Source of the DNA: Actinomycetes bacterium
GTDB lineage: Bacteria > Actinomycetota > Acidimicrobiia > Acidimicrobiales > JABEUL01
Direction of reading: 5' to 3'
DNA length: 57,314 nucleotides
Assembly: GCA_021790815.1 (NCBI GenBank)
Contig: JAJYFT010000005.1
Coordinates: 1 to 57,314, forward strand
Shown here: positions 43,909 to 49,932 of the stretch, one piece after another
Position numbering within the stretch: the first letter of the stretch is position 1
Layout: the number at the start of each line of letters is the position of its first letter
Made by a program: the position numbers and the translations under genes
Notes under the pieces: model-generated
Databases searched by the model: none
Seen by the model: only the letters and a program-made list of their open reading frames with translations
What the model was told of the DNA's origin: nothing

Positions 43909-44586
43909 TTAAGCGGACAGTGCTAGCGCTGCCACTTCAGGTCGTGATCCTAATCTCTTAAGAGCTTCACGTTCAATTCGTCGAATTCTCCTAACTCCGA
44001 CTCCAAGTTGATTTGCTACGCTTTCAAGTGATGCTGGTGGTTTACCTCTCAGCCCAAATCTTAGCTCTACAACATCTCTTTCCATTCCGATTAGTTCTAT
44101 AACCGCTTTCCTAAGATCGTCCTTTGTAATTTCCATCTCAACGTCGCCTTCAAATCCCGAGTCTTCACCTGCTACTAACTCCCCTAGCGTCACGCTTCCT
44201 TCGTCCTCAGCAACTGGCTGATCAAGAGAAACGTCACTCAGACGATTCCTCTCTACTGCCCTCTGCAAAGACTGCCGGATCCACCAGGTTGCATACGTCG
44301 AGAATTTAAAACCTCTTTCCCACTCGAATTTGTCGACGGCTCGCATTAAGCCTATAGTGCCTTCCTGAACTAAATCATCAAAATCAGCCGAACCTTGATA
44401 TCTCTTAGCCCAGTGAACAACCAACCTCACATTTGCGGCCACCATTGCCCGTCTCGCTTCTTCGTCACCGTTACGAATCCTTTTAGCTAGTTCAATCTGC
44501 TCATTATGGCTTAACACTCGGTGACTAGTAAGGGTAGTACCAAGCCTGTAGTTTCTTTCATCGTTTAAATCGTCTCTATTACTCAC
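43909..44586 (-). CDS. RNA polymerase sigma-70 family factor (SigA/SigB-like, no long region 1.1)
   Basis: [61 protein letters not shown]; region 4 EEGSVTL...[16 protein letters not shown]. Confidence 0.92.
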
Positions 44587-45617: not shown

Positions 45618-46106
45618 TTAACTATTTTTAGATTTTTTATACTTATAAGAACCTTTATAGCCGATTGACATTGCGGTCGGAAAGAACTCTTCTGAATACG
45701 CGTATATCGCGCCTACAATTTCATCCAGCTTCAACTCTGTGACTCCCACAACTGGTTCACTGCCAACAAGATAAATGGCGTTCTCTAAGCCAAGAGAGAA
45801 ATGGACAATGTTTAACGTCGAATTCTTCCGCAATAGATAGCTATAACATTGATTCTCTTCAACAATTGGGCCGGGCATAAATTGAGATTCAAAAAAAAGG
45901 CTCCTTTGATCCATATCAAACCAAATTGAAATAAAACTCTTTGCCTCTCCTTTAAGCCTTACAAACCATCTATCATTATCTGGTTCTCCACCCACGGCAT
46001 CGACTAAATCATCGAATCTCTGCGACGATGTTTCCATCCAATTGCAAATTACCTCTCGCGCTCGATCTCTTTCAAAATCTGTCGCGACAGAAAAAGTCAA
46101 GAGCAC
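45618..46106 (-). CDS. YbjN-domain protein
   Basis: Position directly downstream of mshA and the fold-typical pattern; overlaps the mshA 3' end. Confidence 0.7.
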   Translation of the reverse strand: MLLTFSVATDFERDRAREVICNWMETSSQRFDDLVDAVGGEPDNDRWFVRLKGEAKSFISIWFDMDQRSLFFESQFMPGPIVEENQCYSYLLRKNSTLNIVHFSLGLENAIYLVGSEPVVGVTELKLDEIVGAIYAYSEEFFPTAMSIGYKGSYKYKKSKNS

Positions 46107-47344
46107 ATCACCAGAGATTTACTCATAAGCTCTTCTTGAACTCTTAAAATAGCCACTGCGGTCTCTTTCCAAGTGTACTTTGAAGCCATTTCGGCTGCTC
46201 TGTGTGCCATTGCTTCAGCCAGTTCCGGATTTGTCAAGATTCGTAATATCGCATTTGCGTAGTTCTTTGTTTCACGCGAGTCAATCAAGAATCCAGTCAA
46301 ACCATCTTCGACTAGTGTGGTTAAGCCTCCAACGTTGCTTGCAACAACAGGAGTCCCACATGCGAGAGATTCAAGAGCAACAAGCCCGAATGACTCAGAA
46401 TGACTAGGTACTAATGTCACATCACTTGCACGATAAAATGTCGAAAGCACGTGATGCGGTTGTGGTTCAATAAATTGCACTCGTTTTGTTAGGTCTAAGT
46501 CTTTGATCAATTGCATTGAAAGTTCGAACTCTTCTTCACCGTGCACACCGCTCTTGCCGCCTATAACGATCATATTCGCGTCTATTTGCTGAACCACCTC
46601 ATGAAATGCTTGAATCCCAATCGATAGGCCCTTGAGTGGTTGAATTCGTCCAACGAAGGTGACAATATTGCTATTAACGTCATAACCAATTGCTTTTTTT
46701 GCTTGAAATTTTACACCACTTGTAAAATAAGCACGATCGATACCTAGAGGGGCAATTAGCACTTTCGACCTATCTGTAGAGTAAAGATCGACAAGTTGCT
46801 CTCTTTCCACTTCACTAGAAGCGAGAACCACGTCAGAACATTCAATCACTGAAGCTTCAGCTTTTTGCCGCCTAATTGATTCATGGGCATTAATTTCTTC
46901 AATGCTTTCTTGAGCCTTAACTCTATCTAAAGTATGGAAGGTTGAAAATAGCGGGACATCAAAAGCATGTTTCAAAACATGACCTGCAAGCCCACTTAAC
47001 CAGTAATTTGCATGAATGAAATCAATTTTCTGACCTACTGCTTCCAGTTCAATTAATAGTTTTTCAACGCCATCAACAAATTCGGGTACCAGTTCCCAGA
47101 GTCTTTCTTTCGGAAATTCACCGACAGGACCAGCCTTAATGTTATATACAACTACACCCGGTTCTACATAAACCTTATCGGGTTCATTTTCCGATATTTT
47201 TCTGACAAATATGTGGCAATCTACCCCAAGGCGCGCTAAGGCACTCGTCAGTTCTTTCACATAAACGTTCATTCCCCCGCCATCTCCAACACCAGGTTGC
47301 GCTAGTGGCGATGTATGCATTGAAATTACAGCGACTCGTGTCAC
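46097..47344 (-). CDS. mshA: D-inositol-3-phosphate glycosyltransferase (mycothiol biosynthesis)
   Basis: VAVISMHTSPLAQPGVGDGGGMNVYVKELTSALARLGV; FVGRIQPLKG; PSHSESFGLVALESLACGTPVVASNVGGL. Confidence 0.92.
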   Translation of the reverse strand: MTRVAVISMHTSPLAQPGVGDGGGMNVYVKELTSALARLGVDCHIFVRKISENEPDKVYVEPGVVVYNIKAGPVGEFPKERLWELVPEFVDGVEKLLIELEAVGQKIDFIHANYWLSGLAGHVLKHAFDVPLFSTFHTLDRVKAQESIEEINAHESIRRQKAEASVIECSDVVLASSEVEREQLVDLYSTDRSKVLIAPLGIDRAYFTSGVKFQAKKAIGYDVNSNIVTFVGRIQPLKGLSIGIQAFHEVVQQIDANMIVIGGKSGVHGEEEFELSMQLIKDLDLTKRVQFIEPQPHHVLSTFYRASDVTLVPSHSESFGLVALESLACGTPVVASNVGGLTTLVEDGLTGFLIDSRETKNYANAILRILTNPELAEAMAHRAAEMASKYTWKETAVAILRVQEELMSKSLVMCS

Positions 47345-47359
47345 AATGTCTTTAGAACT

Positions 47360-47752
47360 CTATAAGTCAATTTCGGCTTCCAGTTCAGTTTCCACATCAT
47401 CTTTACTAGATGTGTTCTGCTTTAAAAAGAGTCTGTACAGTTGCAATAACGCACTTCTCTGCTCGTCATTCAACTGAGAGTCTGCCAAAATAGCACGACC
47501 TAAATCCAATTCACTGTCTTGGCTTTCAAGGATTCCAGCCCTAAGATAAAGTGTTTCGGCTGAAATGCGCAGAGCTTTGGCTATCTGCTGAAGAATTTCA
47601 GCAGACGGATGCCGAAGTCCTCGTTCGATTTGGCTTAAGTATGGATTTGATATGCCTGCAAGCTCGGAAAGACGTCGAACCGACAGGCGGGCAGAATTTC
47701 TTTGCTCTCTTATGAAAGTGCCAAGTTCTTCGAGTCGGCTTCCATGGCTCAC
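47360..47752 (-). CDS. XRE-family HTH regulator
   Basis: LGTFIREQRNSARLSVRRLSELAGISNPYLSQIERGLRHPSAEILQQIAKALRISAETLYLRAGIL. Confidence 0.95.
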   Translation of the reverse strand: MSHGSRLEELGTFIREQRNSARLSVRRLSELAGISNPYLSQIERGLRHPSAEILQQIAKALRISAETLYLRAGILESQDSELDLGRAILADSQLNDEQRSALLQLYRLFLKQNTSSKDDVETELEAEIDL

Positions 47753-48327
47753 TTAAGCCATCCATCAGCAGAAGCCTTACCGAGTTTATATCGGCGTACA
47801 ATCTCTTCCTGAATTACATCAATAGCTTCATGACATTTCCGTCTTGAGTCAGACAGTTCTCGTTCAAAGTTTGCTAAACGCTCTGTAATACGCTTTGCTT
47901 GATCAGCTTCTAAGTTGGTCAGCTCCCCAACGGACTTTCCTTCGAGTACATTGCTAACTACTGAGTTGAGTTCTTCGAACAGATCCACATCATGATCATT
48001 TCCAGTAGGCGATGACACTTGCAACCTTGATGGATCTGCAAGCGAAGCTTGAGAAAGTATTCCAGGTAACCTATTTACCAGATCATGTATATCAGCAACT
48101 GACAACTCTGCCTCTCCTCCCAGATCAGTTTTGTCGATTAAACCTGCGTGAGAAATGTCTAACCAACCCTGAGAAATTCTTCTCATTATCGATAATGAAG
48201 TTTCAATCGCCTGAAGCTCACTACGCTTAGCTCTTAGATCTTCCACTGAGTAGACGCTTAAGTCATTCCTTAGAATTTCTAAACAACGTTCTTTCACTCC
48301 TGCTAATGCTTCTGTCTCTAATCCCAT
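47749..48327 (-). CDS. rsiG: RsiG/AmfC-like c-di-GMP-responsive anti-sigma factor
   Basis: Exact E(X)3S(X)2R(X)3Q(X)3D at aa 42-57 (ETSLSIMRRISQGWLD), and a second copy at aa 155-170 (ERELSDSRRKCHEAID) with His at the Gln position. Confidence 0.82.
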   Translation of the reverse strand: MGLETEALAGVKERCLEILRNDLSVYSVEDLRAKRSELQAIETSLSIMRRISQGWLDISHAGLIDKTDLGGEAELSVADIHDLVNRLPGILSQASLADPSRLQVSSPTGNDHDVDLFEELNSVVSNVLEGKSVGELTNLEADQAKRITERLANFERELSDSRRKCHEAIDVIQEEIVRRYKLGKASADGWLK

Positions 48328-48610: not shown

Positions 48611-48979
48611 TCAGCTTAATCGTCTCAAAATCTTAATCACTTTTGAGTCTAACATTTCGAGTTTTATTGAACCAAATATTCTAGAATCAGTTGATTGGCC
48701 AGGTTGATCTCCCACCAAAACTCCATAATTCCTGTCAACGACAACCAGTCTCTTAATAATTTGTCTCTTACTGGTTCTAGGATCTTTAAGAACAACAATA
48801 TCGCCAGATCTCGATCTAAATGGAATTAGTTTTATCTTAAGTGTAACCACGTAATCACCATCTCTTAGAGTTGGTTCCATGCTATTTCCAGACACTTTTA
48901 GAATGTTAAACGCATACAGTTTAACTGCAGATATAGAAATTAGCGTAGATATCCACAACATTACTTTTTTTGAAAACAC
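48611..48979 (-). CDS. sodX: S26-family signal peptidase, probable Ni-SOD maturation protease
   Basis: VSGNSMEPTLRDGDYVV (catalytic Ser), RQIIKRLVVV (Lys), GDQPGQSTDSRIFG. Divergent from sodN. Confidence 0.85.
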   Translation of the reverse strand: MFSKKVMLWISTLISISAVKLYAFNILKVSGNSMEPTLRDGDYVVTLKIKLIPFRSRSGDIVVLKDPRTSKRQIIKRLVVVDRNYGVLVGDQPGQSTDSRIFGSIKLEMLDSKVIKILRRLS

Positions 48980-49524: not shown

Positions 49525-49932
49525 ATGTCAATTAAGCACAAACTTTTAAAATTTATTAACACTGGAACGGTAAATGCACACTGTGACTTACCATGTGGTA
49601 TTTACGATCCCACACAAGCAAGAATTGAAGCTCAATCAGTGAAAGCTTGCATGGAAAAATTTAACGCTTCAGACGACGATGTTTTTCGTGGAAGAGCTGT
49701 TTCAATCAAAGAGGAGAGGTCAGAGCTTGTAAAACATCATTTGTGGGTGCTTTGGACTGACTATTTTAAGCCAGAGCATAAAGATAAATTCCCTGAACTG
49801 CACGATCTTTTCTGGAGGGCAACCAAATCTGCTGGTGAGGCCAAAAAAACAAATGATACTGCCGTAGCCGATAAGCTTCTTGATGAAATAGCAGAGATTG
49901 ACAGAATTTTCTGGGAGACCAAGAAAGGCTAA
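49525..49932 (+). CDS. sodN: Nickel superoxide dismutase
   Basis: Ni-hook HCDLPCGIYDP after a short propeptide (MSIKHKLLKFINTGTVNA|HCDLPCG); KHHLWVLWTDYFKPEHK. Confidence 0.97.
   Translation: MSIKHKLLKFINTGTVNAHCDLPCGIYDPTQARIEAQSVKACMEKFNASDDDVFRGRAVSIKEERSELVKHHLWVLWTDYFKPEHKDKFPELHDLFWRATKSAGEAKKTNDTAVADKLLDEIAEIDRIFWETKKG

What the first reader, a model, noticed from the sequence alone, without database searches (positions are those of the whole stretch)
47360..48327. RsiG/AmfC-like c-di-GMP sensor with two signature motifs, translationally coupled to an XRE regulator
The protein at 47749-48327 carries an exact E(X)3S(X)2R(X)3Q(X)3D motif (ETSLSIMRRISQGWLD, nt 48157-48204) and a second copy at nt 47818-47865 (ERELSDSRRKCHEAID) where Gln is His. 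Streptomyces RsiG uses two such coiled-coil motifs to bind c-di-GMP and sequester the sporulation sigma factor WhiG. Finding it in what appears to be a distant actinobacterium, in an ATGA overlap with an XRE regulator and without an adjacent whiG, suggests a c-di-GMP switch with a different or unlinked target. The Q-to-H change could alter ligand stoichiometry or affinity. Which sigma factor it binds is unknown; the one at 43909-44586 is SigA/B-like rather than clearly WhiG-like.
Basis: partly seen in the sequence, partly recalled or inferred. Interest (0 to 1): 0.78.

Follow-up and report, generated by a model that had tools for sequence, protein, structure and literature searches.

The report
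Known c-di-GMP-dependent anti-sigma factor RsiG
This gene encodes an ordinary, divergent member of the known RsiG family, which uses the messenger molecule c-di-GMP to hold back the sigma factor WhiG; the genome carries a WhiG gene on another contig, so nothing exotic is needed, although which genes the switch controls in these uncultured actinobacteria is still open.

Summary
In detail: the 192-aa protein at 47749-48327 (minus strand) holds two RsiG signature motifs, matches Pfam RsiG, and its AlphaFold model matches solved Streptomyces RsiG chains and nothing else significantly. It is very probably a c-di-GMP-armed anti-sigma factor, but no new target is needed: the same genome encodes a WhiG orthologue on contig C23, in the xerC-whiG-rpsB-tsf-pyrH-frr-cdsA order, and 13 GGDEF domains. 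Across 148 genomes of the class, RsiG and WhiG occur together (88 both, 57 neither, 3 discordant), and all 90 RsiG genomes have GGDEF proteins. The Q-to-H change is the majority state in the sampled relatives and is published as compatible with binding. The overlap with the XRE gene is GTGA, not ATGA; rsiG-XRE-mshA is a widely conserved gene order. RsiG in Acidimicrobiales was published in 2021. Remaining points: a family-specific Arg-to-Trp change inside motif 1, absence of PilM and flagellin from this genome, and a WhiG-like promoter ahead of a conserved GGDEF-EAL gene. These are leads only. Verdict: new member of a known kind.

The parts
47749..48327 (-). rsiG homologue, 192 aa, twin-motif c-di-GMP-dependent anti-sigma factor
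   Evidence: PF22802 51.4 bits; 6pfj_T E 8.9e-9; AlphaFold model pLDDT 82.6, Foldseek top four = S. venezuelae RsiG chains, prob 1.00
48157..48204 (-). c-di-GMP motif 1 (helix 28-67 of the model): ETSLSIMRRISQGWLD
   Evidence: conserved in all six genomes of the family
47818..47865 (-). c-di-GMP motif 2 (helix 141-181 of the model): ERELSDSRRKCHEAID, His at the Gln position
   Evidence: His in all six genomes of the family and in most of the sample
47360..47752 (-). XRE-type helix-turn-helix regulator, 130 aa, overlapping rsiG by GTGA (47749-47752)
   Evidence: HTH_3 53.9 bits; next gene after rsiG in 17 of 29 class loci where the downstream gene could be judged
46097..47344 (-). MshA-like glycosyltransferase (mycothiol pathway), next gene after XRE
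   Evidence: TIGR03449 383.5 bits, below the equivalog cut-off 462.5; conserved gene order

Best explanation
The protein is a twin-motif RsiG. Two long helices form an antiparallel hairpin, and the two motifs bind an intercalated c-di-GMP dimer. Only this loaded form grips the sigma factor WhiG, encoded elsewhere in the genome, and keeps it from RNA polymerase. When the GGDEF/EAL enzymes lower c-di-GMP, WhiG is released and transcribes its regulon. Shown here: family, motifs, fold, presence of WhiG and of GGDEF proteins, near-perfect co-occurrence of RsiG with WhiG. Inferred from the solved homologues: c-di-GMP binding, WhiG binding and the direction of control. Not known: the regulon. The overlapping XRE gene is most simply part of an old conserved gene cluster (rsiG-XRE-mshA) that is expressed together; physical partnership is not implied.
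For: Pfam RsiG above cut-off; homology to solved RsiG; AlphaFold helical hairpin with motif helices mostly at pLDDT 90 or more, and Foldseek hits to 6pfv/6pfj RsiG chains only (E 7e-5 to 9e-4, next best 0.19); motif residues kept in all six genomes of the family; WhiG in the same genome at G000:C23:17890-18561 next to rpsB-tsf-pyrH-frr-cdsA; 13 GGDEF matches in the genome; RsiG/WhiG co-occurrence 88 both, 57 neither, 3 discordant of 148, and 90 of 90 RsiG genomes with GGDEF; His tolerated (PMC8325347).
Against: No binding or complex data for this protein. In this family the Arg two residues before the motif-1 Asp, whose equivalent in R. radiotolerans RsiG (R72, by my alignment) hydrogen-bonds WhiG, is Trp, so the interface is not identical. 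The WhiG here departs from residues invariant in 30 class WhiGs at several places. No genome-wide excess of WhiG-type promoters was found. Co-occurrence counts are not corrected for relatedness.
Confidence: 0.87

Rival explanations
1. The protein has the RsiG fold but in this family has been retargeted to another sigma factor, for instance the SigA/B-like one at 43909-44586, or to the XRE protein.
For: Trp instead of Arg at a WhiG-contacting position in all members of the family; overlapping, conserved XRE gene; an alternative sigma gene 3 kb away.
Against: WhiG is present in the own genome and tracks RsiG through the class. XRE adjacency belongs to an old gene order also visible, spread over several kb, in Streptomyces, where the target is WhiG. 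No sequence evidence of binding.
Confidence: 0.08
2. RsiG relic or c-di-GMP-blind anti-sigma factor: fold kept, ligand control lost.
For: Overall divergence (about 30% identity to class homologues). Relatives in a neighbouring family of the order show Asp for Glu in motif 1 and Phe at the Gln position of motif 2 (L003, L010, L021, L174).
Against: In the window and its whole family all key motif residues are kept, with the tolerated His.
Confidence: 0.04
3. Chance coiled-coil motif in an unrelated helical protein.
For: Coiled coils are of low complexity and often hit by chance.
Against: Family, phmmer and fold matches are specific; shuffled frames never give two motifs.
Confidence: 0.01

Closest known systems
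RsiG of Streptomyces venezuelae (6pfj, 6pfv), twin-motif monomeric anti-sigma of WhiG
   Same: Length, two motifs on two long helices, fold (Foldseek prob 1.00), WhiG and GGDEF proteins in the same genome
   Different: About 30% identity; His in motif 2; Trp for Arg inside motif 1; rsiG directly followed by the XRE gene; regulon unknown
Single-motif homodimeric RsiG of Rubrobacter radiotolerans and Conexibacter woesei (7lq2-7lq4; PMC8325347)
   Same: Same motif and ligand logic; His at the Gln position in C. woesei
   Different: Those have one motif per chain and dimerise; this one has two motifs in one chain
XRE regulator of the Rv0474/MSMEG_0918 kind (identification from memory, not tested)
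   Same: Small HTH regulator near mshA in actinobacteria
   Different: No sequence comparison to Rv0474 was made here; RsiG is not known to me from mycobacteria

Membership tests
RsiG (twin-motif) | Two E(X)3S(X)2R(X)3[Q/H](X)3D motifs | tested here: met
   kept in six of six family genomes
RsiG (twin-motif) | Match to the curated family model | tested here: met
   PF22802 51.4 bits, cut-off 27
RsiG (twin-motif) | Helical-hairpin fold of solved RsiG | tested here: met
   AlphaFold pLDDT 82.6, Foldseek 6pfv_T prob 1.00, TM 0.67 on target
RsiG (twin-motif) | Cognate WhiG sigma factor in the genome | tested here: met
   G000:C23, 256 bits
RsiG (twin-motif) | c-di-GMP made in the organism | tested here: met
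   13 GGDEF matches, (presence of genes only; enzyme activity not testable)
RsiG (twin-motif) | Binding of a c-di-GMP dimer, and c-di-GMP-dependent binding of WhiG | not testable with these tools
   needs purified proteins
WhiG (sigma-28/FliA clade), for the C23 protein | FliA_WhiG model above cut-off, regions 2, 3 and 4, Streptomyces-like gene context | tested here: met
   (context in Streptomyces from established knowledge)

The most novel reading that the evidence does not exclude
In a large part of the class (39 of 90 RsiG genomes sampled, the window's among them, have neither PilM nor flagellin) the RsiG-WhiG switch controls neither type IV pili nor flagella as known, but chiefly c-di-GMP enzymes themselves: a WhiG-like -10 element stands about 13-21 bases before a conserved GGDEF-EAL gene in all six genomes of the window's family (GCCGAT in five, GCCGAA in one), which would make a feedback loop. 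The family-specific Trp in RsiG would mark a co-evolved interface with a divergent WhiG.
Probability: 0.2. Interest if true: 0.5.

Novelty: new member of a known kind. Interest (0 to 1): 0.25.

Why it matters
It adds class-wide genomic support (148 genomes) for RsiG and WhiG as one functional unit outside the filamentous actinobacteria. It points to a group in which the output of the switch is unknown because the markers of the known outputs (pilus PilM, flagellin) are absent. The window gene itself changes little: RsiG in Acidimicrobiales was reported in 2021.

Tried and rejected
WhiG-promoter scan of the own genome (TAAA-N15-GCCGATAA, up to two mismatches): 299 sites against 313 for the reversed control, no excess. 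A tuned pattern in six family genomes: 36 listed sites against 30 for the control. Promoter element ahead of the GGDEF-EAL gene in other families of the order: not found ahead of the nine closest orthologues, whose starts are uncertain, so it is at most a family-level feature; in one genus of the family the -35 box is not TAAA. Type IV pilus as output: no PilM; two secretion ATPases only, a lone PilT-like one and a Tad type, with a prepilin peptidase nearby, and no convincing WhiG site there. A first genome search with PF01339 (CheB) was misdirected and of no use. XRE as a BldD-like c-di-GMP receptor: looked at by eye, no such signature recognised; not tested further.

Full report
Check of the observation. 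The gene is on the minus strand, 48327 to 47749, 192 aa. Pfam RsiG PF22802 matches at 51.4 bits with a cut-off of 27, and the Streptomyces venezuelae RsiG of the solved complex aligns over residues 19-190 at E = 8.9e-9. The overlap with the XRE gene is GTGA, not ATGA; it is the same in three of the family relatives.

Fold. An AlphaFold model from 22 aligned homologues has pLDDT 82.6. The motifs lie on helices 28-67 and 141-181, both mostly above 90, with a weak stretch at 95-105, which fits the published picture of a long RsiG loop whose folding depends on WhiG. Foldseek against the PDB gives four matches with E below 0.001, all S. venezuelae RsiG chains of the RsiG-(c-di-GMP)2-WhiG complex, probability 1.00, TM 0.67-0.69 on the target; the next match has E = 0.19.

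Partner. The window's genome (2.44 Mb, 179 contigs, 94.7% complete) has a WhiG at contig C23, closest to S. venezuelae WhiG among solved proteins, in the order xerC-whiG-rpsB-tsf-pyrH-frr-cdsA-dxr (gene names from the translations, by my reading), which is the Streptomyces arrangement (established knowledge). It has 13 GGDEF matches. In 148 genomes of the class, 88 have both RsiG and a strong WhiG (249 bits or more), 57 have neither, and three are discordant; one of these, G119, has a WhiG-like match cut by a contig end. All 90 RsiG genomes have GGDEF proteins, against 8 of 58 without RsiG. The presence/absence pattern changes in several families, so it is not one event, but no tree-aware test was made.

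Q to H. In 58 RsiG proteins collected here, Gln in helix 1 with His in helix 5 is the commonest state (34), His/Gln the reverse in six, Gln/Phe in seven (the motif picking was automatic and a few rows are misassigned). The published logo placed the frequent His in helix 1, and Conexibacter RsiG with His binds c-di-GMP with Kd 25 uM (PMC8325347). The change is ordinary. What is peculiar to the window's family is Trp in place of the Arg two residues before the motif-1 Asp (all six genomes; seen nowhere else in the sample). The equivalent Arg72 of R. radiotolerans RsiG bonds WhiG Asn47 (PMC8325347; the equivalence is my alignment). The own WhiG also departs from positions invariant in 30 class WhiGs. 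Co-evolution of the interface is a guess.

Neighbourhood. rsiG is followed by the XRE gene in 17 of 29 class loci where this could be judged (the 30 best-scoring loci, not a random draw), and in four more mshA follows directly. Loci L101-L180 were fetched with the XRE protein and so cannot be used for this rate. In three Streptomyces loci rsiG lies 2.6-5.6 kb upstream of the same XRE gene on the same strand, and mshA lies further down in many of the Streptomyces loci. The adjacency is thus an old gene order. A superoxide dismutase gene stands on the other side in many loci (nickel type in the window's family, Fe/Mn type elsewhere). Records near the window are named Acidimicrobiales: L109, 'isolate clean376', carries the same RsiG protein as family locus L096.

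Output. The own genome lacks PilM and flagellin matches, as do 39 of 90 RsiG genomes. One WhiG-like site with a single mismatch lies 18 bases before a 1010-aa GGDEF-EAL gene. The -10 core GCCGAT recurs at the same place in four of five family relatives, and GCCGAA in the fifth, but not in other families, and there is no genome-wide excess of sites. In Rubrobacter WhiG is thought to drive several c-di-GMP enzyme genes (PMC8325347), and in Streptomyces the GGDEF-EAL protein RmdB antagonises RsiG (PMC13232838). It is a lead, found after the fact.

Verdict. A divergent member of a known family with its known partner present; RsiG was reported from Acidimicrobiales (3 of 4 species) in 2021 (PMC8325347). 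Interest is low; the open question is the regulon in this class.

Noticed in passing
window 48611-48979 (-) and 49525-49932 (+): Nickel superoxide dismutase (PF09055, 148.6 bits) and a SodX-like maturation protease (TIGR02754 62.8 bits, just under its cut-off 63.25) upstream of rsiG; an SOD gene next to rsiG recurs in many class loci.
   Followed up: partly
L003, L010, L021, L174 (rsiG genes): A sub-lineage of RsiG with Asp for Glu in motif 1 and Phe at the Gln position of motif 2, possibly with altered or lost c-di-GMP binding although WhiG is kept in genomes of that family.
   Followed up: no
L008, L013, L016, L017, L022, L025, L027: A second RsiG type in the class with His in helix 1 (and mostly Gln in helix 5), in a different neighbourhood without the XRE gene and mshA.
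   Followed up: no
G000:C120:29169-29195 (L181:2170-2196): WhiG-like promoter 18 bases before a 1010-aa GAF-GGDEF-EAL gene; the -10 core recurs in the five other genomes of the family (GCCGAA in one) but not in other families.
   Followed up: partly
window 43909-44586 (-): Short SigA/B-like sigma factor (225 aa) with regions 1.2, 2 and 4 matched by Pfam but no region 3 match.
   Followed up: no
window 46097-47344 (-): MshA-like glycosyltransferase scores 383.5 bits, clearly under the MshA equivalog cut-off of 462.5; it may be a divergent MshA or a relative.
   Followed up: no
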